DNA of 53,830 nucleotides, taken from Candidatus Acidiferrales bacterium. GTDB lineage: Bacteria > Acidobacteriota > Terriglobia > Acidiferrales > UBA7541. Position numbers and translations under genes: made by a program. The notes beneath the pieces are model-generated. The model saw only the letters and a program-made list of their open reading frames with translations. It did not search any database and had not been told where the DNA came from. The stretch is taken from positions 1 through 53,830 of the forward strand of contig JASHRN010000174.1 of the NCBI GenBank assembly GCA_030037335.1. The letters are read 5' to 3'. How positions within the stretch are numbered: the stretch's first letter is position 1; each line of letters begins with the position of its first letter. This document shows positions 5,190-17,554 of the stretch, one piece after another.

Positions 5190-6548
5190 ATGGAAACCAG
5201 CCAGGCATCGCGAAACGGCAAGCCTTATCTTCTGCCGGAGAAATCACTCCAGTCCCTCGATGAGTACATCAATATTGGAGGGCTCCAGGCCCTAAAAAAG
5301 GCTTATTCCATGCCGCGCGAAGCGATCATCGCTGAAATAAAGAAATCCGGCTTGCGTGGCCGCGGCGGCGCTGGATTCCCAGTTGCTATCAAGTGGACCA
5401 GTATTTTCAGCGATCCGTGCGCCACAAAATACGTCGCTTGCAATGCCACGGAGGGCGAGCCGGGCACCTTCAAAGATCGTATGCTGATGCGCCGCAATCC
5501 CTATCAGCTTCTCGAAGGCGTCGCGATCGCTGCGTACGTGATGAAAGCGCAAAAGGGCTTCATCGCGATGAAGCACACTTTCGATGAAGCCATCGCCCGC
5601 ACTGCTCAGGCCCACATGGAAATGACCGCGCGCAATGCGCTCGGCGATATTCCCATCGAATTCGTCTACGGCCCCGAGGATTATCTACTCGGCGAAGAAA
5701 AAGCCATGCTGGAGGTCATCGAAGGGCGCGAAGCCATGCCGCGCGAAATGGATTTTCCGCCCTATGTGCTTGGACTTTTTGCCGGCTATCCTTCATGCAT
5801 CCCTGGACGAACAAATCCAACGCTTGTAAATAATTGCGAGACGATGTCCAGCGTCACGCACATTGTTCGCAATGGCGGCGATTGGTTCCGCTCGATGGGT
5901 ACTGCCGACACGCCGGGTCACACGATTTTTACGCTTTCGGGAGACGTCCAGCGCGAGGGCTTGTACGAATTGCCTATGGGCACAACGATGCGCGAGCTTA
6001 TCGAGAAGTGGGGCGGCGGATTGAAACCGGGCCGCAAGCTCAAAGCGATCTTTTCGGGGGTCGCCAGCGCCGGGCTCTATCCCGAGGCTATCGACACGCC
6101 ACTCGACTTCGGCTCCATGCGCAACGCCGGCTCCGGCCTCGGCTCGGCGGGATTCATGGTTTACGACGATTCCAATTGCATGGTCCAGGTCGCCTATTGT
6201 TTTTCGAAATTCCTTTGGATCGAATCATGCGGCCAATGCCGCTCCTGCAAAGAAGGAACCTACGAAGCCACGCACCGCCTGGAAAAACTAATTGACGGCA
6301 CAGGTGACGAAATTGACCTGGAAGCGATCTTCCATTCCTCGACGAACGCACCGCGCGGCAATCGCTGCTTCCTTCCCACGGAGCACTCGCTGATCATTCC
6401 CAGCATCGTGCGCACATTCGAATCGGAATTTGTGGCGCATTACCGCCGCGGCTGCCAGAACTGCCGCATCCCCGTCCTGCCCAAAATGCACGACTACGAC
6501 GAAGCCAAGCACGAATTCCACTACACCCACGGACGCCTGACCCCTTAA
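5190..6548 (+). CDS. nuoF: NADH-quinone oxidoreductase subunit F (NuoF)
   Basis: Flavoprotein subunit of complex I (452 residues) that takes electrons from NADH to FMN and the N3 iron-sulfur cluster. Visible signatures are the glycine-rich GLRGRGGAGFPVAIKW (residues 55-69) of the FMN/NADH site, NATEGEPGTFKDR (family usual NADESEPGTFKDR), and the 4Fe-4S motif ESCGQCRSCKEGT with a fourth Cys in RGNRCFLPTEH. The C-terminus adds RRGCQNCR, an extra Cys pair outside the core. AGGAG lies 11 bases before the ATG. No nuoE or nuoG is adjacent, so it is separated from the rest of the complex; it could also serve a NuoEFG-like module of another enzyme. Confidence 0.92.
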   Translation: METSQASRNGKPYLLPEKSLQSLDEYINIGGLQALKKAYSMPREAIIAEIKKSGLRGRGGAGFPVAIKWTSIFSDPCATKYVACNATEGEPGTFKDRMLMRRNPYQLLEGVAIAAYVMKAQKGFIAMKHTFDEAIARTAQAHMEMTARNALGDIPIEFVYGPEDYLLGEEKAMLEVIEGREAMPREMDFPPYVLGLFAGYPSCIPGRTNPTLVNNCETMSSVTHIVRNGGDWFRSMGTADTPGHTIFTLSGDVQREGLYELPMGTTMRELIEKWGGGLKPGRKLKAIFSGVASAGLYPEAIDTPLDFGSMRNAGSGLGSAGFMVYDDSNCMVQVAYCFSKFLWIESCGQCRSCKEGTYEATHRLEKLIDGTGDEIDLEAIFHSSTNAPRGNRCFLPTEHSLIIPSIVRTFESEFVAHYRRGCQNCRIPVLPKMHDYDEAKHEFHYTHGRLTP

Positions 6549-6687
6549 GCTTGCTGCCGTTTTCTGCCCGCGGCGAGGTTGCCTGCTAGTAAACCCTCAC
6601 AATAATTTCGTCGCATCGCCACATGCAGGCGAGCATCCTAATACCAGCGCTTTAGGCCCAATCCAATAAGCTAAGGAGCACGTGAAA

Positions 6688-7064
6688 ATGAAATCGCTGG
6701 CCCTTCCCTGCGCTATTTTTGTTTTTGCGCTGGCCGCTTCAGCCAATCCGCGCATTTTCAAAGGCCAAATCATGGACAGCGAATGCGCCACCAATGCTCA
6801 CTCTGCCACTCACTCACATACAGAGATGGCCGGATCAAAGGCAACATCACAAACCGCCAATGTACAATCCTGTGCGTCGAGCAGGGCGACAGCGTTTACA
6901 TGTTCCTCGACCACAATGGGAAAACCGCGTACAAGTTGTCTACGCCGCAAAAGGATTTGAAGCAGTACGCGGGCGAAAAAGTCGAGATCGTGGGCGAGCT
7001 TGATGATCAGGGAAAGTTGATCCACGTCAGCAAAATCAAAGCCATTGGCGACACGGGCAATTAA
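6688..7064 (+). pseudogene. Small secreted protein with a frameshift
   Basis: AAGGAG stands 9 bases before ATG 6688 (a GTG at 6682 is also possible). The first frame gives a signal peptide (KSLALPCAIFVFALAASA) and then FKGQIMDSECA. Beyond about 6830 the sensible protein continues in the frame one base back: NRQCTILCVEQGDSVYMF, then YAGEKVEIVGELDDQGKLI, ending at TAA 7062-7064. Joined, the two halves match the pattern of a short acidobacterial secreted family I recognise (IMDSxCA ... CxLxCV ... FAGxKVxVxG), of unknown function. A single missing base between about 6815 and 6845 would explain it; sequencing error and true decay cannot be told apart here. I saw no slippery heptamer. Its stop overlaps that of convergent rsmE. 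Confidence 0.7.
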
Positions 7065-7798
7065 GACGCATCCTTCTCCAACGCATAGCGGACAACCGCC
7101 AGCGCCGCAATAACCGCTGTCTCTGTGCGCAGGATTTCGCGGCCGAGAGACGCTTCCCGAAACCCGCTCCTCGCAGCGGCGGAAAATTCCGCATCCGTCC
7201 AACCCCCTTCCGGCCCAATCGCGATACAAACTTCTCGGCCGGATACTCTCTGAACGATTTCACCCAGCGGCTGCGCGGTGACACGTTCCGAAAAAATGAT
7301 TTTCAGGTTCTCGTGGGCCGCCCCGAATGCGGCGTCTGCTCTTGCGGTCGCAGTCAGAGCTGGCGGACGCAACCTTCGCGACTGCTGCGCGGATTCCAGC
7401 AATATCTTCTTCCAACGTTCGCAGCGTTTTGCCGCGGCCTGAATGAGTGCCTTTTCACTTCGCTCTGCTGCGAGCAGGACAATTTCACTCACTCCTAACT
7501 CTGTTGCTTTTTCCAGGCACCACTCCATGCGGTCAAATTTCACGAGGGAGAGCAGAAGCCTGATTCGCAGCGATGAATCCACCACAGTAATTTTTTCAGT
7601 CAGCGCGAATTCAATGGCGCCGCCTGCACGGCCACTGGGAATTTTATCAACGCGCGCGAGCCAAACCTCTGTGCCGTCGCTCAGTTCATAGAGCTGTCCC
7701 GGTTCAGCACGAAGTACCCTTCCGAGATGCTGTGCTGCTTCGCCGCGAATCTCGGCGCGGTCACCATCGAATTTTTCCACAAAGAATCGCCTGCGCAT
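7061..7798 (-). CDS. rsmE: 16S rRNA (uracil(1498)-N(3))-methyltransferase RsmE
   Basis: SPOUT-class methyltransferase of 245 residues that methylates U1498 of 16S rRNA using SAM. The N-terminal RNA-binding half begins MRRRFFVEKF and includes HLGRVLRAEPGQ. The C-terminal trefoil-knot signatures are clear: IGPEGGWTDAEF and then SLGREILRTETAVIAAL. Length is normal. Its last codons overlap the end of the convergent frameshifted gene by four bases. Start choice follows the conserved N-terminus. Confidence 0.93.
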   Translation of the reverse strand: MRRRFFVEKFDGDRAEIRGEAAQHLGRVLRAEPGQLYELSDGTEVWLARVDKIPSGRAGGAIEFALTEKITVVDSSLRIRLLLSLVKFDRMEWCLEKATELGVSEIVLLAAERSEKALIQAAAKRCERWKKILLESAQQSRRLRPPALTATARADAAFGAAHENLKIIFSERVTAQPLGEIVQRVSGREVCIAIGPEGGWTDAEFSAAARSGFREASLGREILRTETAVIAALAVVRYALEKDAS

Positions 7799-7813
7799 CA
7801 GTTCGCTACAATC

Positions 7814-8938
7814 TCAATCCCTTTCGCGCGTCACCACATGGACGTCAACTTCCGGCGATTCGCGCAGAAAGCGGTATATGGGAGAGAGATAGAGAAACTT
7901 CTTCCAACCTTTCACGGCGGAGCGGCCAAAGATGACCTGCGTAATGTGCTTATCGCGGACGAATACCGCAATGGCGTCGGCGATGCTGCTTCCCTTCAGG
8001 CGCACAATCGTTGCTCCCAGGCTCTCCGCAAACTGAAGTGTTCCCTCAAGAGATTTCCCGTCTTCCTCGCGCTGCTCTCTGCCCGTGTTGACGTAGATGG
8101 CGAAAAACTCGGCATCCAACCGTCGCGCCACGCGCGCGGCGCGCGCGATCAGATATTGTGCGTTGGGCCCGGGATGCACGCAAACGGCAACACGTTCGCG
8201 CACTGCCCAGTTCTTCTGTATTTCCTTCGCAGCCATGTAATTTTCGAGGCTGCGGTCCACCTGTTCTGCTACTTGCCGCAGGGCCAACTCGCGAAGTGCA
8301 ATCAGATTGCCGCGCCGGAAAAAATTTCCGAGAGCCTGTTCGACCTTTTCGGGCAAATAGACATCGCCGCGACGCATGCGGTTCTGAAGAGCCTCTGGCG
8401 TAAGATCCACCATCACCGTTTCGGTCGCCATCAATGGCACCCAGTCGGGAAGAGTTTCGCGTACCGTAATCCCGGTGATGTTGCGGACAACCGGCGCAAT
8501 GCTTTCAATGTGCTGGATATTCAGAGTCGCCAAAACGTCAATCTTCTCGTTTAGGATTTCCTGCACGTCTTCGTACCGTTTGCGGTGCTTGCTGCCCGGA
8601 ATATTTGTGTGAGCGAGTTCATCGACAAGGACAACCTGCGGCTTGCGCGCGATGATCGCGTCCACATCCATTTCCTCGAACATTGTTCCCTTATATTCAG
8701 TCCTGCGGTGGGGAACCTTTTCAAGCTGGGAAGCGAGCTCCTCGATGCCTTTGCGCCCATGGCTCTCCACTACGCCAATCACCACATCTTCTCCGCGGCC
8801 GCGACGGCGAATGCCCTCATTTAACATGCTGTATGTCTTGCCGACACCAGGAGCGTAGCCGAGGAAGAGCTTGAAAGTTGCTTTGGTTTTCGGCTGAGGA
8901 GAGGCAACTTCCAGCCAGTCCTCCGGTTTTTTTGGCAA
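7814..8938 (-). CDS. kdpD: Stand-alone KdpD N-terminal module (KdpD ATPase domain plus USP domain)
   Basis: 374 residues matching only the cytoplasmic N-terminal part of KdpD. Walker A is GYAPGVGKT (residues 27-35), Walker B-like VVLVDELAHTN (102-112), followed by the KdpD-typical GSKHRKRYEDV. Residues from about 245 to the end form a universal-stress-protein fold (VAVCVHPGPNAQ, DAEFFAIYVNT, QVIFGRSAVKGW), and the protein ends with it. No membrane, HisKA or ATPase domain follows; these are encoded divergently from 8989. The start is TTG with AGAGG 5 bases upstream, in a 50-base divergent spacer. Truncated KdpD proteins are known in cyanobacteria and Deinococcus; the pairing in trans with the divergent kinase is inferred. 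Confidence 0.9.
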   Translation of the reverse strand: MPKKPEDWLEVASPQPKTKATFKLFLGYAPGVGKTYSMLNEGIRRRGRGEDVVIGVVESHGRKGIEELASQLEKVPHRRTEYKGTMFEEMDVDAIIARKPQVVLVDELAHTNIPGSKHRKRYEDVQEILNEKIDVLATLNIQHIESIAPVVRNITGITVRETLPDWVPLMATETVMVDLTPEALQNRMRRGDVYLPEKVEQALGNFFRRGNLIALRELALRQVAEQVDRSLENYMAAKEIQKNWAVRERVAVCVHPGPNAQYLIARAARVARRLDAEFFAIYVNTGREQREEDGKSLEGTLQFAESLGATIVRLKGSSIADAIAVFVRDKHITQVIFGRSAVKGWKKFLYLSPIYRFLRESPEVDVHVVTRERD

Positions 8939-8988
8939 AGCAACCTCTTTAAGCGAGGGTGACCTTAATAGGATAAAATCCCGCAGTC

Positions 8989-10449
8989 ATGGCTTGGTCT
9001 TCCAAGCGACTCGTTCGGCTTATCGTGGCCCTGGCCATTGTCGCTGCCATTACAGCATTTTTCCGCGAAGAACTTCCCAGCGTGAACCAAACGACCGTAG
9101 CGCTCTCTTTTCTGATGGCGATTTTAGCAGTTTCAGCCGTATGGGGTATGGTGATCTCCGCTGTCATGTCGCTAGCGGCAATGCTCGCGTTTAACTATTT
9201 TTTCCTGCCGCCAGTGGGCACATTGACCATTGCCGATCCGCAGAACTGGATCGCGCTCTTTGCCTTCTTAGCTACGGCGGTTGTAGGCAGCCAGCTTTCG
9301 GGCAGGATGCGCAGGGAAGCCGACGCGGCCAATCAGCGCAGGCGAGAAATCGAGAAGCTTTACGTCTTCTGTCAAAAGCTGCTCGGCGAAGGAAACGTGA
9401 TTCAGTTGCTCAACGCAATTCCCAATCACCTCATCGAGGCATTCGAGGCCGGAGCTGCCAGCCTGTTCATCGCCGAGAAGAGCAAATTCTACCATTCTGG
9501 CCGTGGCCTATCGCAGGTGGACGAAGAAAAAATGAAAGCTGCTTTTAACAACGACGAACCCTTGGTGGATCCTGAGCGGCGGCTCTGCGTCGCCCCGGTG
9601 CGTTTAGGTCTGCGACCGATCGGCAGTTTCGGAACCTCAGGCTGCTTGCTTTCGCGGGGAACCTTGGAGGCCGCAGGGACGCTCATCGGAATTTCCATCG
9701 AGCGGGCGCGTGCCGTGGAACAGTTAGGTAAGACCGAAGCGGACCGTCAGGGCGAACGGCTGAAATCCGCCTTGCTCGACTCCATCACGCACGATTTCCG
9801 CACGCCGCTTACGTCGATTAAGGCTTCAGCAACGAGCCTGCTTTCTTCGGATAATCACGACGCGGAGCGCCGCCATGAACTTCTATCCGTGATTGACGAG
9901 GAATGCGACCGGCTCAATCACCTTGTTGCAGAAGCGACTGAGATCGCCCAGTTGGAATCTGGCGAAGTGGAGTTGCATTTTGGAGCCGTACCCATCGATC
10001 AAATCATCGACGCGGCTTTGGCTCATTCACGGAAAGCTCTTGGATCGCGAGAGTTGCGCTTGAACATTCCTCCCGGTATTCCACCAGTGAGAGCAGACCT
10101 CCGGCTGGTGAAGGAAGTCCTGAACCAGTTGCTCGACAATGCTAATCTGTACTCTCCGAAGGATCATCCCATCACCATCACAGCTGAGACGACCGGAGCT
10201 TTCGTGACCATTAGCGTTGCAGACCAGGGCCCCGGCATTGAAGAGTTTGAGCAGGCAATGATCTTCGACAAGTTTTATCGAGGCAAGGATCAGCGGTATC
10301 TCGTGCAAGGCACCGGAATGGGTTTGCCGATAGCCAGAGCCATTGTCCAGGCCCACGGAGGATCTATTGGGGTGACAAGCCAAGTGAGCCACGGTTCCGT
10401 TTTCTCTTTCACTCTGCCGGTTGCGACTGCATTTCCAAACGGACAATGA
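8989..10449 (+). CDS. Membrane sensor histidine kinase, KdpD C-terminal half (DUF4118-HisKA-HATPase)
   Basis: 486 residues with four closely packed TM segments in residues 8-103 (the DUF4118 arrangement of KdpD), a GAF-like linker at about 125-245, the phosphorylation motif SITHDFRTPLTSI with His268, and the ATP-binding boxes NQLLDNANLYSP, DQGPGIEEFE and GTGMGLPIARAI. It therefore supplies what the 374-residue KdpD module lacks. The stop overlaps the kdpE start by 4 bases (ATGA), so kinase and regulator are translationally coupled. There is no strong Shine-Dalgarno before the ATG. It is expected to sense potassium limitation or ionic state at the inner membrane; this is inferred from context. 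Confidence 0.93.
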   Translation: MAWSSKRLVRLIVALAIVAAITAFFREELPSVNQTTVALSFLMAILAVSAVWGMVISAVMSLAAMLAFNYFFLPPVGTLTIADPQNWIALFAFLATAVVGSQLSGRMRREADAANQRRREIEKLYVFCQKLLGEGNVIQLLNAIPNHLIEAFEAGAASLFIAEKSKFYHSGRGLSQVDEEKMKAAFNNDEPLVDPERRLCVAPVRLGLRPIGSFGTSGCLLSRGTLEAAGTLIGISIERARAVEQLGKTEADRQGERLKSALLDSITHDFRTPLTSIKASATSLLSSDNHDAERRHELLSVIDEECDRLNHLVAEATEIAQLESGEVELHFGAVPIDQIIDAALAHSRKALGSRELRLNIPPGIPPVRADLRLVKEVLNQLLDNANLYSPKDHPITITAETTGAFVTISVADQGPGIEEFEQAMIFDKFYRGKDQRYLVQGTGMGLPIARAIVQAHGGSIGVTSQVSHGSVFSFTLPVATAFPNGQ

Positions 10450-11165
10450 GCTCCGCCAAGATCCTCGTTGTTGATGATGAACCGCAAGTGCGGCGCGTAA
10501 TGAAGCTCACGCTTACTGCGAGCGGCTACACCGTTGTTGAGGCACGCGACGGCGAAGAGGCCCTTAAAATTTTTCGCATGGAAAAGCCCGACGTTGTCTT
10601 ACTCGACGTCAACATACCCGTAATGGACGGCATTGCGGCTTGCTGCGAAATCAGAAAAGGGTCCTCGGTCCCCATCATTATGCTTACGGTTCGCAGCGCT
10701 GAGCGCGACAAGGTGCTTGCTCTTGACGCCGGCGCCGACGACTACGTTGTAAAGCCCTTCAGTATGCAGGAATTGCTGGCGCGCATCCGCGCTGCCCTGC
10801 GCCGCACTGTGCCTCCGGACAATCTGCCCAACTTCGTTTCAAAACCGTTGCGCATCGAGTTTGAAACTCGACGCGTGTTTGTGCGCGGACGCGAAGTTCA
10901 TCTCACTCCCAAGGAATTTGAGCTGCTGCGCCAGCTTGTGGCGAATCAGGGCAAGCCGCTGACTCATCGGCGTCTGCTGCAAACTGTTTGGGGACCGGAC
11001 TATGGAGATGAGCCGGAATATCTTCGGGTCGCGATCAATCAGCTTCGAAAGAAAATTGAAAATAATCCAGCGCGTCCCCAATTGATTCTCACTGTGCCCT
11101 GGGTGGGCTATCGGTTCGAGCCGCCCCAAGATGCCCGCTCGCCTGCGGGTGTTGCAGCTGAATGA
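10446..11165 (+). CDS. kdpE: Response regulator KdpE (OmpR/PhoB family)
   Basis: 239 residues: a receiver domain with acidic pocket VDDE (10-13), phospho-acceptor Asp54 in VVLLDVNIPVMDG and Lys103 in VVKPF, then a winged-helix DNA-binding domain (HLTPKEFELLRQLVANQG ... LLQTVWGPDYG ... LRVAINQLRKKIE ... VPWVGYRF). These are typical KdpE sequences. It overlaps the upstream kinase gene by 4 bases. Its last 58 bases overlap the end of convergent kdpC. Probable target: the direct-repeat box at 17651-17668 in front of the porin/kdp transcript. Confidence 0.94.
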   Translation: MSSAKILVVDDEPQVRRVMKLTLTASGYTVVEARDGEEALKIFRMEKPDVVLLDVNIPVMDGIAACCEIRKGSSVPIIMLTVRSAERDKVLALDAGADDYVVKPFSMQELLARIRAALRRTVPPDNLPNFVSKPLRIEFETRRVFVRGREVHLTPKEFELLRQLVANQGKPLTHRRLLQTVWGPDYGDEPEYLRVAINQLRKKIENNPARPQLILTVPWVGYRFEPPQDARSPAGVAAE

Positions 11166-11734
11166 GTCATCGGATAAGCTGCATCGAGGTCTAGATTCAG
11201 CGACTGTACATTCACACGCGGCTCGCCAAAAATTCCAAATTGGCGTCCCTCGGTGTGCTTTCCTACCAGCGCACGCACTTGCGCCTCGCTGATTCCTCGC
11301 TCTCGTGCGACGCGCGGAATTTGAAAGTCTGCCGCTGCTGGCGTGATGTCCGGATCCAGGCCCGATGCTGAGTCGGTCACAAGATCCACCGGGATCGGCT
11401 CGCCCGGATTTTCAGCGCGCAGCTTCTCAGCATAATTCTTGACCTGTGTGATTAGCTGCTGATTGGTCTGTCCCCAATTGGAGCTGCCGGAAGAAAGCCC
11501 GTCATATCCAGTCCCTGCCTGAGATGGCCGCGAATAAAAATACCCCGCCGAAGAAAATCCCTGCCCGATGAGTTTCGAACCGATCACCACGCCATTTTTC
11601 CGGATAAGGCTTCCATCCGCTCTCGCCGGAAAGAGCACATGCGCGATCGCGGTAACCACCAAGGGATAAATAATTCCAAACAGAATCGTCGTGACGATGG
11701 TCATCCAAAATGCGGTTTTGAGCTCGCGCTTCAT
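11108..11734 (-). CDS. kdpC: Potassium-transporting ATPase subunit C (KdpC)
   Basis: 208 residues with one N-terminal TM segment (TAFWMTIVTTILFGIIYPLV) and a periplasmic domain. Family motifs are GYFYSRPSQAG, GSSNWGQTN and VTDSASGLDPDITPAAADFQ, with VARERG and VRALVGKHTEGR near the end. KdpC stabilises the KdpFABC complex and raises ATP affinity. It begins 15 bases after kdpB. The family's usual end (VNVLxLNLALD) is matched by VNVQSLNLDLDAAY, and then about 20 further residues extend into sequence that also encodes the convergent kdpE C-terminus. Confidence 0.94.
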   Translation of the reverse strand: MKRELKTAFWMTIVTTILFGIIYPLVVTAIAHVLFPARADGSLIRKNGVVIGSKLIGQGFSSAGYFYSRPSQAGTGYDGLSSGSSNWGQTNQQLITQVKNYAEKLRAENPGEPIPVDLVTDSASGLDPDITPAAADFQIPRVARERGISEAQVRALVGKHTEGRQFGIFGEPRVNVQSLNLDLDAAYPMTHSAATPAGERASWGGSNR

Positions 11735-11749
11735 CGCTTCATCTTCCCT

Positions 11750-13804
11750 CTACGCCCAATGCAAAACTCGAATCAACACATCGAGCAGCTTGATTCCGAT
11801 GAACGGCGCAATGATTCCGCCCATGCCGTAAATCAGCAGATTGCGGCGCAGCAGCGCCGCCGCGCCCACCGGACGATACCTCACACCGCGCAAAGCCAGC
11901 GGAATCAGCGCTACGATAATCAGCGCGTTGAAAATCACCGCGGACAAAATGGCGGATTGCGGCGTCCTCAGATGCATTATGTTCAGGATGCCTAATTGTG
12001 GAAAAACCCCTGCGAACATAGCCGGAATTATCGCGAAATACTTGGCAACATCGTTCGCTACTGAAAATGTGGTCAGTGCGCCCCGGGTAATCAGCAGTTG
12101 TTTGCCGATCTCGACAATTTCGATGAGTTTCGTGGGATTCGAATCCAGATCCACCATATTTCCGGCTTCTTTGGCCGCTTGCGTTCCCGTATTCATCGCC
12201 ACGCCCACGTCTGCTTGCGCCAAAGCGGGAGCGTCATTCGTGCCGTCCCCGGTCATCGCCACTAGCCGGCCATTTGCCTGCTCGCGGCGAATCAACGCCA
12301 TCTTGTCTTCGGGTCTGGCTTGAGCAAGGAAGTCATCCACACCGGCCTGGCGCGCGATCGCCGCAGCAGTCAGCGGATTGTCACCCGTAATCATTACAGT
12401 CTTGATGCCCATCGCGCGAAGGTGATCGAATCGCTCGCGCATCCCGCCTTTCACAATGTCAGTCAGGGCGATCACTCCAAGGATGCGCCGATTCTCGGTG
12501 ACGAGCAGAGGGGTCCCGCCAGAACTTGCGATGCCTTCAATCTGCTTCTGAACTTCAGCAGGAATGAGGTTTCCGTGCTCGGTCGCATAGCGAGCAATAG
12601 CATCGGGCGCGCCCTTGCGAATCTGCCGTCCGTCGAGATCCACACCGGACATCCGTGTATGTGCGGAAAATGGAATGAAATTTGTTTCGTGAGCGGAGAG
12701 GTCACGCCCGCGCAAGCCGTATTTTTCTTTTGCGAGCACGACGATCGAGCGGCCCTCGGCCGTTTCATCCGCTAAAGAGGAAAGCTGCGCTGCGTCTGCC
12801 AATTCCCTTTCGTTCACTCCCGGCGCGGCGATGAACTGCGTGGCCGCGCGGTTGCCAAGCGTGATTGTTCCTGTTTTGTCCAGCAGCAGGATGTCCACGT
12901 CCCCGGATGCTTCCACCGCCCGTCCCGACATGGCGATTACATTCCGCTGAATCAAACGATCCATTCCAGCAATTCCAATGGCTGACAGCAGCCCGCCGAT
13001 CGTCGTCGGTATCAAGCACACGAGCAACGCAACCAGCACGAAAATATTCTGCGACGCATGAGAATAGATTGCGAATGGCTGCAGGGTCGCAACTGCCAGA
13101 AGGAAAATGATCGTCAGGCCGGCGAGCAGAATGTTCAACGCAATCTCGTTCGGTGTTTTCTGGCGAGAAGCGCCTTCCACGAGGCGAATCATGCGATCCA
13201 GAAATGTTTCTCCGGGATTCGCGGTGATACGGATCCTGATTTCATCGGAAATCACGCGCGTCCCGCCGGTGACTGCCGAGCGATCTCCGCCAGATTCACG
13301 AATGACTGGCGCGGATTCGCCCGTGATCGCCGATTCGTCAACCGAAGCGATGCCCTCGATGACTTCACCATCTCCGGGAATGAATTCGCCCGCAGTGACA
13401 ATCACCACATCACCCGCCCGCAGCGTAGAACCCGGCACTTGCTCGATCGAGCCGTCATCCTTCACCCGGTGAGCCTCGGTTTCCGCGCGCGCTTTCCGGA
13501 GCGTTTCCGCTTGCGCCTTGCCGCGACCTTCAGCCATGGCTTCCGCGAAATTTGCGAACAGCACCGTGAACCATAGCCAAAGGGTGATCTGCAGCCCAAA
13601 ACCGAATCCGACCGAGACGACATGATGCGCAGCGTTCCACAGGAGCTGAATCGTGGTTATGACCGCGCCAACTTCTACGACGAACATGACTGGATTCTTG
13701 ACCATCGTGCGCGGATGAAGCTTGCGGAAAGAGTCGCCGATTGCGCGCACAACTATTTTCTTCTCTCGAAGTGCACTTCCTTTCGCGTTAGAGGTTCCGG
13801 TCAT
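11750..13804 (-). CDS. kdpB: Potassium-transporting P-type ATPase subunit B (KdpB)
   Basis: Catalytic P-type ATPase subunit of KdpFABC, 684 residues. The phosphorylated aspartate is D309 in [13 protein letters not shown]. The actuator loop is [12 protein letters not shown] (TGES at 161-164, including the serine phosphorylated in the E. coli enzyme). The nucleotide and P domains show [14 protein letters not shown] and [25 protein letters not shown] hydrolysis here drives K+ import through KdpA. It lies 6 bases after kdpA and 15 before kdpC, in one operon. Confidence 0.97.
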
Positions 13805-13810
13805 AACGAA

Positions 13811-15583
13811 TCAGAATGCTTTGCCGGCATACATCAGCAAATGCTCAAGAATGGGCCCGAGGCTAAGCGCCGGGAAAAACGTCAGCGCGACGACGATCAG
13901 TATCGTCGAGATCAAAAGCACGCTAAAAAGCGGCCCAGTTACCGGGAACGTGCCCAATGAAGGCGGGGCCGTCTTCTTGCGCGCCAGGCTGCCGGCAATC
14001 GCAAGCACGGGGATGACCATGAAAAACCGCCCGAGCAGCATCGCAGCCGATGTGCTCATGTTGTACCAGAGCGTATTCGCATTAAGACCCGCAAATGCCG
14101 ATCCATTATTCCCGACCGTGGAAGCGTACGCGTACAGCACCTGAGAAAGTCCGTGCGGGCCAGGATTCGTGATGCTGGACGTCCCGAAAGGCTCGACAAC
14201 CGCGATTGCTGAGAGAATCAGCACCACAAATGACGTGACCAGAATGGAAAGCATGGCCATCTTCACGTCATAAGACTCAATTTTCTTGCCTAGATATTCC
14301 GGCGTGCGGCCCACCATCAATCCAGCGATGAACACCGCAATAATCACGAACACCACCATCCCGTAAAGCCCTGAACCGACGCCGCCAAAGACGATTTCTC
14401 CAAGCATGATGTTCGTAAGAGGAATCAATCCGCCCAGCGGTGTGAACGAATCGTGCATGCTGTTCACTGCGCCGCAACTCGTGTCTGTGGTGACCGTTGC
14501 GAAGAGAGCCGAATCGGCTATTCCAAAGCGAACCTCCTTGCCTTCCATGTTGCCGCCCGGCTGCAGAGTACTGTGAGCCTGATCGACCATGGAAAATTCG
14601 GGATTACCGCGAGCTTCAGCCCAATAAGCCACGGTAACAGCCATCAAAAACAGAGCGGCCATGGCGCCCCACACCGCCCAGCCGTGCCGTTGAGAACCAG
14701 TCATACGTCCCAATGTGTAAGTCAATGCCGACGGGATCAGCAAAATCAAAAACATCTCCAGAAAATTCGAGAACGGCGTGGGATTCTCGTAGGGATGCGC
14801 GCTGTTCGCATTGAAGAATCCGCCGCCATTGGTGCCCAGCTCCTTTATGGCTTCCTGTGAAGCCACAGGGCCTTGAGGGATGGTTTGCTGGCTCACGACC
14901 TGAGTAACCGGCTTGCCGTCAGAGCCGGTCGTCGTGACTTTCTGAGGAGCAATAACGTGCGCTGTTACGTAAGGCTTGAAGTTCTGAATCACGCCCTGCG
15001 AAACAAGTACGAGCGAACCGACCAGCGCCAGCGGCAAGAGAATCCAAAGCAGTCCGCGTGTCATATCCACCCAAAAATTGCCGATGGTCTTCATCTCGCG
15101 CCGCGCAATGCCGCGGATCAGCGCAATGGCCATCGCGATGCCAACAGCCGCTGAGGTGAAGTTGTGGTACGCCAGCCCCGCCATCTGCGTCAGATAACTC
15201 ATCGTGGTTTCGGGCGTATACGATTGCCAGTTCGTGTTTGTAGTAAAGGAAACTGCAGTGTTAAGAGCCACATTCGCCGGAACTGCTGCCAGCTTTTGCG
15301 GATTCAAGAATAGCCATTGTTGCGTTCGCTCAATGACGTACAGGACTACAAGGGACACGACACTGAACAGAAGCATCGCAATCGCGTATTCGGGCCAGCT
15401 CATTTCCCGCTTTTCGTCCACGCCAGTGAGCCGATAAATCAATTTTTCTATCGGCCGCAAAACTGGATCGAGAAAAGTCTTCTCGCCATTGAACACGCGC
15501 GCAATGAAAGCGCCTAAAGGTCTCGTGACCAGCAAAATCACGCCAAGAAGAAATAGAATTTGGAACCAACCGTTTGCTGTCAT
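13811..15583 (-). CDS. kdpA: Potassium-transporting ATPase subunit A (KdpA)
   Basis: Channel-like K+-binding subunit, 590 residues from ATG 15583, chosen because family members begin with an MTANGWFQI-type sequence; the frame is open 20 codons further upstream into kdpF. The four pore loops of the SKT superfamily are visible: TNTNWQ (115-120), GTNGGGFF (250-257), TTDTSCGAVN (365-374) and VGNNGSAF (490-497). Ten or so TM segments are present. It starts 2 bases after the kdpF stop, so kdpF and kdpA are tightly coupled. Confidence 0.96.
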   Translation of the reverse strand: MTANGWFQILFLLGVILLVTRPLGAFIARVFNGEKTFLDPVLRPIEKLIYRLTGVDEKREMSWPEYAIAMLLFSVVSLVVLYVIERTQQWLFLNPQKLAAVPANVALNTAVSFTTNTNWQSYTPETTMSYLTQMAGLAYHNFTSAAVGIAMAIALIRGIARREMKTIGNFWVDMTRGLLWILLPLALVGSLVLVSQGVIQNFKPYVTAHVIAPQKVTTTGSDGKPVTQVVSQQTIPQGPVASQEAIKELGTNGGGFFNANSAHPYENPTPFSNFLEMFLILLIPSALTYTLGRMTGSQRHGWAVWGAMAALFLMAVTVAYWAEARGNPEFSMVDQAHSTLQPGGNMEGKEVRFGIADSALFATVTTDTSCGAVNSMHDSFTPLGGLIPLTNIMLGEIVFGGVGSGLYGMVVFVIIAVFIAGLMVGRTPEYLGKKIESYDVKMAMLSILVTSFVVLILSAIAVVEPFGTSSITNPGPHGLSQVLYAYASTVGNNGSAFAGLNANTLWYNMSTSAAMLLGRFFMVIPVLAIAGSLARKKTAPPSLGTFPVTGPLFSVLLISTILIVVALTFFPALSLGPILEHLLMYAGKAF

Positions 15584-15585
15584 CG

Positions 15586-15717
15586 CTAGAATTTCTCCGG
15601 CCATAACAGGGCCGCCAGCAGATATCCGCACACCAGCACGCAAATCACAATCAACGCGATTTCTCCGGCAATGTGCGGACCAGTTCTGATTACCAGCAGC
15701 AGCGGATTCATCAGCAT
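15586..15717 (-). CDS. kdpF: KdpF-like small membrane subunit
   Basis: 43 codons from ATG 15717 with AAGGAG 5 bases upstream. One hydrophobic segment (IALIVICVLVCGYLLAALL) is followed by WPEKF at the C-terminus. The ending YLLxALLxPEKF is the hallmark of KdpF, the roughly 29-residue subunit that stabilises the KdpABC complex. This version is longer at the N-terminus (MLMNPLLLVIRTGPH). It sits immediately before kdpA, as kdpF does in other bacteria. Confidence 0.85.
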   Translation of the reverse strand: MLMNPLLLVIRTGPHIAGEIALIVICVLVCGYLLAALLWPEKF

Positions 15718-15726
15718 CGTCGCTCC

Positions 15727-15813
15727 TTACTTCAGCCGTTCACATCCGCGAACGTAAAGAATCCCGATCGCGAAGAAAATCACAGTCGCCAAAATGTAAA
15801 TCGCATCTTTCAC
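15727..15813 (-). CDS. 28-residue single-span membrane microprotein of the kdp operon
   Basis: GTG start at 15813 with GGAG 7 bases upstream; 28 codons end at TAA 15729..15727, nine bases before the kdpF start. After KDAIY there is one TM segment (ILATVIFFAIGILYV) and a short tail RGCERLK. From memory, similar tiny proteins ending in (Y/V)xRxCERL lie next to kdpF in other Acidobacteriota and some other phyla, but I know of no assigned function. It could be an additional Kdp subunit. Frame, ribosome site and packing between the porin and kdpF support its being a gene. Confidence 0.65.
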   Translation of the reverse strand: MKDAIYILATVIFFAIGILYVRGCERLK

Positions 15814-15862
15814 GTCGCAACTCCGCTAGATCCTAATTTTGTGCGTCCAAATCCGCCAAAAG

Positions 15863-17554
15863 CTAAAATTTGACCAGGATGTCCATATCGATGAATGACT
15901 GATCCTTGCGCAGATCCGGGAACCAAACGCTGCTGATCCCGCCCCCGCAAGCAACTTCCGCAGCGGCCAGCGTCATTTGCCCCGAGGAGGCCCCGTCAAT
16001 GCACGCGTAGTCTTCGGGAGAACCGTTGTTTCCACCCGGAGGCGTGATGCCGCCGCGGCCTGTCCAATACGGCACGTTCGCGTGCCGATAGTCATACTCC
16101 CAACGGAACGTAATGTATTGGCTCGGCATGTAGTCGAATGTGTAAGACGAATCCCATGCCTTGAATGGGTTGCCGGGATTTTCCGTAAAATATGGCGAAT
16201 TCGTCGAGGCGGTAATGGCGGTCTCGCCATTGATGGGCGGCAGAAGCACCAAATACCTTCCCGGGTTGTTGATTTCGCCGCCACCAACCGTCATCCCAAA
16301 CAAGTCTTTGTGAAACCAAAATCGGTTGTAGGCCATATAACCAATGAAACTCTGCTTCGGCCCGCCCTTCGTATCGCCGTGGCAGCTTACGCCCGCGCCG
16401 TATTCGCACCCCATATCTCCGGTCAACGTGAACGCCATCTTGTCGAGAGTATTGTTCGGCTCGTCGAAATACTTCACTTCGACACTGTCGTCGGTGTGCA
16501 TCCGCCTGCGGCCCGGCGTGAACAAATCATCCTCGCCAACTCCGTAATTATTCGAAATGATGTTGATCCAGCCTGCCGGAGTCCATTTGACCTGGCCGCC
16601 CACTCCGGGCGAGTGATTCGCCGAGCCATATGCCTGCCATCCATTGATGAACCACGGCTCGATTTTCAAATGCGCCGTCGGGAAAATTTGCACCCGCAAG
16701 CCATTGAAAAACCACGGCGTATTCGACGAAACATACGAAGGCTGATAGGCCCAGTTATCGAAATTGTAGAAGCTAAATAAGCCGATGTACGACATGAAAA
16801 TGCCCGCATCAATGTTGACGCCGTGCAGGACATCCCAGTGATATCCGCCGTATCCTTCCGAAATATATCGATACGCATCCGCAAGGTTATATTGACCATT
16901 CCCCGGACTCGGGTCATTTCGCGGAATGGCCTGCGAATACATTCCGAACTGCGTCATAAACCTGCCGTGAACATTGTCGTAGTGAAAATCGCCACCGACG
17001 CCGAGGTCTTCCAGTTGCACCTCTTGAGAGCGAAAAACCTCCGTCGATCCATCCATTGAGTGATCTGCCGGGTGATTGAAATCATAGGCATAAGTTGTGT
17101 CGATCCTGACCTCAGGCGTGAAGAATTTTGAGTCAAACGCTGGCGTTTTCGTGCGGGGATTGCCGTTAAGCCAAGTCCAATCGTAGTCCGAAAAAGGCGC
17201 GATTTTCGCAGGTTTCTGAGGAGGGGTAGTGGACGACTCCTGTGTTGTCTGTGCCACAGTGGAAGATTCGCTCGTTTTCGCCGGCGGTGCAGTATTCTTC
17301 GACTGCTCCATCTGTTGATCCTGCTTCTTGAGTTGTGCTTCCAGTTCTGCGATGCGTTTTTTCATCGCGTCCAGTTCCTGGAGAATAGCGGCGCGCTGGT
17401 CGCCGGCGCCGGCTTGCTGATCTGGAGCTGGCGCACTTGGCTTGTTTGAACCAGTCGAGCTGATGTTTTGTGAGAAACACGGCACGCACCATGCGCCCAT
17501 AACTGCCGCGCAGATCGCAAGGCCCACCGCGCAATTTCGTAGAAAGCCCGTCAT
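15863..17554 (-). CDS. Outer-membrane beta-barrel porin (OmpL-like BBP2 type) of the kdp operon
   Basis: 563 residues from ATG 17554, preceded by GAGGAG at 7 bases; the frame is open 82 codons upstream, but the signal peptide (TGFLRNCAVGLAICAAVMGAW, cleaved near CFSQ) fixes the start. A Pro/Gln-rich coiled-coil segment (RIAELEAQLKKQ) follows, then a long barrel-like region rich in alternating aromatic residues, with FDNWAYQPSYVSSNTPWF and IEPWFINGWQAYG typical of the BBP2 porin family. It ends with the aromatic MDILVKF. Only 49 bases separate it from the 28-residue gene and kdpF, so co-transcription with kdpFABC is likely. A role in passing K+ across the outer membrane is inferred. Confidence 0.85.
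   Translation of the reverse strand: MTGFLRNCAVGLAICAAVMGAWCVPCFSQNISSTGSNKPSAPAPDQQAGAGDQRAAILQELDAMKKRIAELEAQLKKQDQQMEQSKNTAPPAKTSESSTVAQTTQESSTTPPQKPAKIAPFSDYDWTWLNGNPRTKTPAFDSKFFTPEVRIDTTYAYDFNHPADHSMDGSTEVFRSQEVQLEDLGVGGDFHYDNVHGRFMTQFGMYSQAIPRNDPSPGNGQYNLADAYRYISEGYGGYHWDVLHGVNIDAGIFMSYIGLFSFYNFDNWAYQPSYVSSNTPWFFNGLRVQIFPTAHLKIEPWFINGWQAYGSANHSPGVGGQVKWTPAGWINIISNNYGVGEDDLFTPGRRRMHTDDSVEVKYFDEPNNTLDKMAFTLTGDMGCEYGAGVSCHGDTKGGPKQSFIGYMAYNRFWFHKDLFGMTVGGGEINNPGRYLVLLPPINGETAITASTNSPYFTENPGNPFKAWDSSYTFDYMPSQYITFRWEYDYRHANVPYWTGRGGITPPGGNNGSPEDYACIDGASSGQMTLAAAEVACGGGISSVWFPDLRKDQSFIDMDILVKF

What the first reader, a model, noticed from the sequence alone, without database searches (positions are those of the whole stretch)
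7814..10449. KdpD split into two divergently transcribed genes
The sequence shows a 374-residue KdpD ATPase+USP protein on the minus strand and, 50 bases away on the plus strand, a histidine kinase with the four-TM DUF4118 input region, HisKA and ATPase domains. Together they cover the full domain order of E. coli KdpD. Short KdpD forms are known in other phyla, but here both halves are present and start from one shared 50-base spacer, so their ratio may be set by one promoter region. A trans-acting sensor made of two proteins is inferred.
Basis: partly seen in the sequence, partly recalled or inferred. Interest (0 to 1): 0.55.

Follow-up and report, generated by a model that had tools for sequence, protein, structure and literature searches.

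The report
Potassium sensor KdpD as two genes
In this soil acidobacterium and most relatives examined, the bacterial potassium sensor KdpD is encoded by two back-to-back genes instead of one; separate chains were already reported for this phylum, but the back-to-back layout and the frequent lack of the expected control molecule's synthase leave open how the pump-switching half is told about potassium.

Summary
A 374-aa KdpD+Usp protein (7814-8938, minus) and a 486-aa DUF4118/HisKA/HATPase kinase (8989-10449, plus) start 50 nt apart and align to E. coli KdpD 16-368 and 403-884. The draft genome (87% complete) holds no other copy of either domain. The split itself is published: Silberberg et al. 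2024 report that in Acidobacteriota a serine-kinase KdpD/Usp chain and a histidine kinase are often separate. The best reading is two enzymes: a soluble kinase that shuts the pump by phosphorylating KdpB, and a membrane kinase that controls transcription through KdpE. A physical two-protein sensor is neither shown nor excluded. Additions here: the divergent layout with a conserved -10-like element just before the histidine kinase; kdpE on either side of the pair; and absence of a c-di-AMP synthase in 75 of 88 pair-bearing genomes, the window's included, so the c-di-AMP input shown for a Deinococcus short KdpD cannot be general.

The parts
7814..8938 (-). kdpN: short KdpD (KdpD + Usp domains, 374 aa, TTG start); probable atypical serine kinase
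   Evidence: PF02702 1.1e-89, Usp 1.4e-5; aligns to E. coli KdpD 16-368; Walker A GKT, Walker B DE and R190 equivalents present
8258..8884 (-). KdpD (PF02702) domain
7835..8197 (-). Usp domain; the position equivalent to S. aureus S244 is His (residue 255)
8944..8949 (-). Shine-Dalgarno-like AAGAGG, 5 nt before the TTG start
   Evidence: read from the sequence; a CTCC/TCTC-type complement lies upstream in 50 of 88 relative spacers
8939..8988 (.). 50-nt spacer between the two start codons
   Evidence: median 52 nt in 61 loci of family f1 and 46 nt in 28 loci of f4
8974..8979 (+). -10-like TAAAAT, 9 nt before the kinase ATG (6 nt in most relatives)
   Evidence: TANAAT within 14 nt of the aligned start in 69 of 88 spacers, shuffled mean 0.94, maximum 4
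8989..10449 (+). kdpHK: DUF4118 + HisKA + HATPase_c histidine kinase, 486 aa
   Evidence: aligns to E. coli KdpD 403-884
9022..9339 (+). DUF4118 region, probably four transmembrane helices
   Evidence: helices in a modest model, mean pLDDT 65.7
10446..11165 (+). kdpE-type response regulator, overlaps the kinase gene by 4 bp (ATGA)
   Evidence: 45% identity to E. coli KdpE; below NCBIfam's KdpE cut-off
11108..11734 (-). kdpC
   Evidence: PF02669 1.2e-71
11750..13804 (-). kdpB, with the TGES motif that holds the S162 equivalent
13811..15643 (-). kdpA
   Evidence: TIGR00680 2e-227

Best explanation
KdpD's two enzymatic jobs sit on two polypeptides. The 374-aa KdpD/Usp protein is a soluble atypical serine kinase that phosphorylates KdpB at the TGES serine and so shuts the pump when potassium is plentiful. 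The 486-aa membrane histidine kinase senses potassium and passes phosphate to the KdpE next to it to switch on kdpABC. Shown here: domains, conserved catalytic residues of the serine kinase, the target serine in KdpB, and conserved gene pairing. Inferred from E. coli and Deinococcus work: the activities and their outputs. Unknown: what signal reaches the serine kinase here; c-di-AMP is unlikely because no synthase gene was found.
For: Domains and alignment to the two halves of E. coli KdpD. GKT, D109, E110 and R190 equivalents are invariant in 90 of 90 split-type proteins; the adenine-contacting W39 is Y or F. TGES is kept in 54 of 54 KdpB proteins of loci scored as split, the window's included. 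Silberberg 2024 showed that E. [quoted passage not shown] Losses fit separable functions: G033 keeps kinase and KdpE without KdpN or a KdpC hit; G087 likewise, but is 72% complete.
Against: No activity was measured. Loss of the short gene together with KdpC in G033 is a single good case. The pairing is kept so closely that the two may cooperate. NCBIfam's short-KdpD model (NF038185) scores 378.7, below its cut-off of 550. The response regulator does not reach the KdpE cut-off. W39 is not conserved.
Confidence: 0.68

Rival explanations
1. The two proteins bind each other and rebuild a full-length-like KdpD in trans: the membrane kinase's potassium-sensing region controls the serine kinase, and/or the short protein tunes the kinase or the KdpE-DNA complex.
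For: Pair and close spacing conserved in two families. No c-di-AMP synthase in 75 of 88 pair genomes, so another input is needed. In E. coli the separate N-terminal domain (1-395) acts on kdpFABC expression, interacts with the C-terminal part, and truncated KdpDs cannot repress at high potassium (passages of PMC2714519).
Against: No interaction evidence; no complex could be modelled with these tools. The kinase occurs without the short protein (G033, G087). Neighbouring genes need not mean contact.
Confidence: 0.3
2. The short protein is switched by c-di-AMP through its Usp domain, as shown for Deinococcus geothermalis KdpD.
For: Same domain architecture; proposed in general for short KdpDs. 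13 of 88 pair genomes do carry a synthase.
Against: No synthase (PF02457) in the window's genome or in 75 of 88 pair genomes. The S. aureus motif SXS-X20-FTAXY is complete in 0 of 90 split-type proteins and the window's S244 equivalent is His. The motif test is weak: the D. radiodurans short KdpD lacks it too.
Confidence: 0.05
3. The split is an assembly or frameshift artefact or a decaying gene.
For: The genome is a draft in 255 contigs.
Against: Opposite strands, intact frames, invariant catalytic residues and 88 genomes with the same layout.
Confidence: 0.01

Closest known systems
Separate ASK (KdpD/Usp) and HK (TM/GAF/DHpCA) chains described by Silberberg et al. 2024 (PMC11018627)
   Same: Same two domain sets and same phylum; the paper names Acidobacteriota and Chloroflexota as the commonest holders.
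   Different: The passages read do not mention gene orientation; [quoted passage not shown]
Full-length E. coli KdpD
   Same: Both halves align to it in order.
   Different: One chain there, two divergent genes here.
Solo short KdpD (Deinococcus, cyanobacteria, many Acidobacteriota)
   Same: KdpD + Usp, no kinase domain.
   Different: Solo genes mostly follow kdpC without an adjacent kinase; split-type proteins form their own clade.

Membership tests
Short KdpD (KdpD/Usp atypical serine kinase) | KdpD and Usp domains without a histidine kinase domain | tested here: met
Short KdpD (KdpD/Usp atypical serine kinase) | Walker A, Walker B and adenine-binding residues | tested here: met
   GKT, DE, R190 in 90 of 90; W39 replaced by Y/F
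Short KdpD (KdpD/Usp atypical serine kinase) | Target serine in KdpB (TGES) | tested here: met
Short KdpD (KdpD/Usp atypical serine kinase) | Phosphorylates KdpB | not testable with these tools
   needs a kinase assay
Short KdpD, c-di-AMP-controlled subtype | A diadenylate cyclase in the genome | tested here: not met
   0 hits in G000 (87% complete); present in 13 of 88 pair genomes
Short KdpD, c-di-AMP-controlled subtype | Usp domain binds c-di-AMP | tested here: inconclusive
   S. aureus motif absent, but a Deinococcus short KdpD lacks it as well
NCBIfam NF038185 KdpD_non_kinase | Score above 550 bits | tested here: not met
   378.7 bits
Full-length KdpD | All domains on one chain | tested here: not met
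   none elsewhere in the assembly
KdpD histidine kinase part | DUF4118, HisKA, HATPase_c in order and alignment to E. coli KdpD | tested here: met
KdpE | NCBIfam PRK10529 cut-off of 325 bits | tested here: not met
   200.6 bits; 45% identity to E. coli KdpE and gene context are the only support
Two-protein trans sensor | Physical or functional interaction of the two proteins | not testable with these tools
   no complex modelling or assay available

The most novel reading that the evidence does not exclude
In Terriglobia that lack c-di-AMP, the histidine kinase and the serine kinase form a potassium-responsive pair in trans: the membrane kinase both drives kdp transcription and licenses the separate serine kinase to lock the pump, a tandem kinase working as two polypeptides.
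Probability: 0.25. Interest if true: 0.6.

Novelty: new member of a known kind. Interest (0 to 1): 0.36.

Why it matters
KdpD was recently shown to hold two kinases in one chain. A lineage that keeps them as two neighbouring genes, mostly without the messenger thought to control short KdpDs, is a natural place to ask whether the two kinases need contact and what tells the pump-locking one about potassium.

Tried and rejected
Rejected: assembly or frameshift artefact (opposite strands; 88 genomes alike). Rejected: a hidden full-length KdpD in this assembly or in the 95 genomes of the order searched; the genome is 87% complete, so a copy in the missing part is not strictly excluded.

Led nowhere: consensus promoter and terminator scan of 8600-9300, 0 found; Rfam on 6500-17000, 0 hits; AlphaFold model of the short protein, mean pLDDT 46.2, not used; kinase model, mean pLDDT 65.7, used only for helix order; its fold search gave ordinary histidine kinases. 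The c-di-AMP motif test is inconclusive. No conserved promoter for the minus gene.

Evidence against my own reading: three f4 genomes with a solo short KdpD (G101, G221, G253) also lack the synthase, so its absence is a trait of the lineage and does not single out the split pair. The shuffle control ignores shared ancestry. Solo genomes outside the class have the synthase in 28 of 30, which is likewise confounded by descent.

Selection: of 110 genomes over the PF02702 cut-off, I fetched 79 besides the window's; those left out were almost all frames of about 900 aa, so the 'full-length' count (9) is a chosen subset. Trees used part of the rows: 90 of 176 and 54 of 116; both are quick searches. 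The pump was sampled through KdpC only.

Full report
What is there. [quoted passage not shown] The short protein has the KdpD and Usp domains; the kinase has DUF4118, HisKA and HATPase_c. They align to E. coli KdpD residues 16-368 and 403-884. Each domain occurs once in the draft genome, here.

Conservation. In the order, 95 genomes were searched; 68 have a PF02702 hit over the cut-off. With the window, 60 of these 68 hold the divergent pair. The other eight are G053 (pair present, but a 760-aa permease gene lies between), G016, G019 and G063 (contig-end or partial hits), and G064, G066, G084 and G085 (a tandem type of short KdpD; G085 only a fragment of it). In family f4 of the same class, 33 genomes were examined, 31 have a hit and 28 hold the pair; three (G101, G221, G253) have a solo short KdpD. 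Five of the six named records from the genome collection that encode a relative also show it, but three of these have the contig lengths of loci in the order set and are probably the same sequences. In the other sampled families no divergent pair was seen: solo, tandem, co-directional or full-length forms occur instead.

Layout. The spacer between aligned starts has a median of 52 nt in 61 f1 loci and 46 nt in 28 f4 loci. In f1 the response regulator gene follows the kinase gene (49 of 61 loci; 11 not scored; 1 the other way). In f4 it follows the short gene instead (26 of 28; 2 not scored). The exception in f1, the second locus of G089, groups with f4 in both trees, which suggests transfer. 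So the divergent unit is kept while kdpE sits on either side; a flip of the whole unit would explain this (inference).

Spacer. In 69 of 88 relative spacers a TANAAT hexamer ends within 14 nt of the aligned kinase start; in 51 it lies at one and the same distance, which corresponds to 6 nt before the ATG or GTG. Shuffled spacers gave a mean of 0.94 and a maximum of 4, though relatedness inflates such a contrast. A G two bases before the hexamer is conserved in 96% of 54 f1 rows. That geometry fits a leaderless or nearly leaderless kinase transcript (inference). In the window the element is TAAAAT at 8974-8979, 9 nt from the ATG. No conserved promoter for the minus gene was found.

Ancestry. 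Split-type short proteins form one clade (30 sampled rows, support 100) outside the E. coli-like full-length group. Split-type kinases form one clade that also holds the kinases of genomes without an adjacent short gene (33 rows, support 99). The root is not resolved, so fission and separate origin are both possible. One full-length KdpD (G152) carries an N-terminal half of the solo type and a kinase half near the split type, and G103 has the same combination as two co-directional genes, an apparent separate fusion or fission.

Mechanism. Silberberg et al. 2024 (abstract, passages and section 8 read; [quoted passage not shown] coli is an atypical serine kinase that inactivates the pump by phosphorylating KdpB S162, and that a short KdpD from Deinococcus geothermalis is stimulated by c-di-AMP. 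[quoted passage not shown] The catalytic residues are invariant in 90 of 90 split-type proteins, and the KdpB motif TGES is kept in 54 of 54 proteins of loci scored as split. Two enzymes with separate outputs is therefore the best reading.

The open point. A diadenylate cyclase domain was found in 8 of 60 pair-bearing f1 genomes (one of them a weak hit, G055) and 5 of 28 in f4, against 28 of 30 genomes with a solo short KdpD outside the class. The window's genome has none. c-di-AMP made by the cell therefore cannot be the general input. The three solo f4 genomes lack it too, so this is a trait of the lineage. The kinase's potassium-sensing part acting in trans, another Usp ligand, or no regulation are left. 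E. coli work (PMC2714519, passages) shows that a separated N-terminal domain can act on kdp expression and interacts with the C-terminal part, which keeps the trans reading alive. The S. aureus c-di-AMP motif comes from passages of PMC4686210.

Literature. Searches for a divergent kdpD pair (listings only, beyond the three papers read in part) showed no description of it; the library holds only openly licensed papers.

Noticed in passing
G041, G083, G090, G064, G066, G084 and others, e.g. L182:5866-8119: Two short KdpD genes in tandem, often near kdpABC; in 13 of 28 tandem rows the Walker B glutamate is Gly or Pro, so one copy may be an inactive partner.
   Followed up: partly
L141:7262-9544 (G053): A 760-aa AA_permease_2 transporter gene inserted between the short KdpD gene and the kinase gene, in the kinase's direction.
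   Followed up: partly
window 11108-11165: kdpE and kdpC overlap tail to tail by 58 bp; in many relatives the two ends are only a few bases apart.
   Followed up: no
L128 (G152) and L093 (G103): A full-length KdpD with solo-type N-terminal half and split-type kinase half, and the same combination as two co-directional genes.
   Followed up: partly
L200 (G033): Kinase and KdpE kept without short KdpD or a KdpC hit, downstream of a LacI-type regulator gene; its target is unknown.
   Followed up: partly
window 7061-7814: An RNA methyltransferase gene (PF04452) lies 15 bp downstream of the short KdpD gene on the same strand; the link was not seen in the relatives mapped.
   Followed up: no
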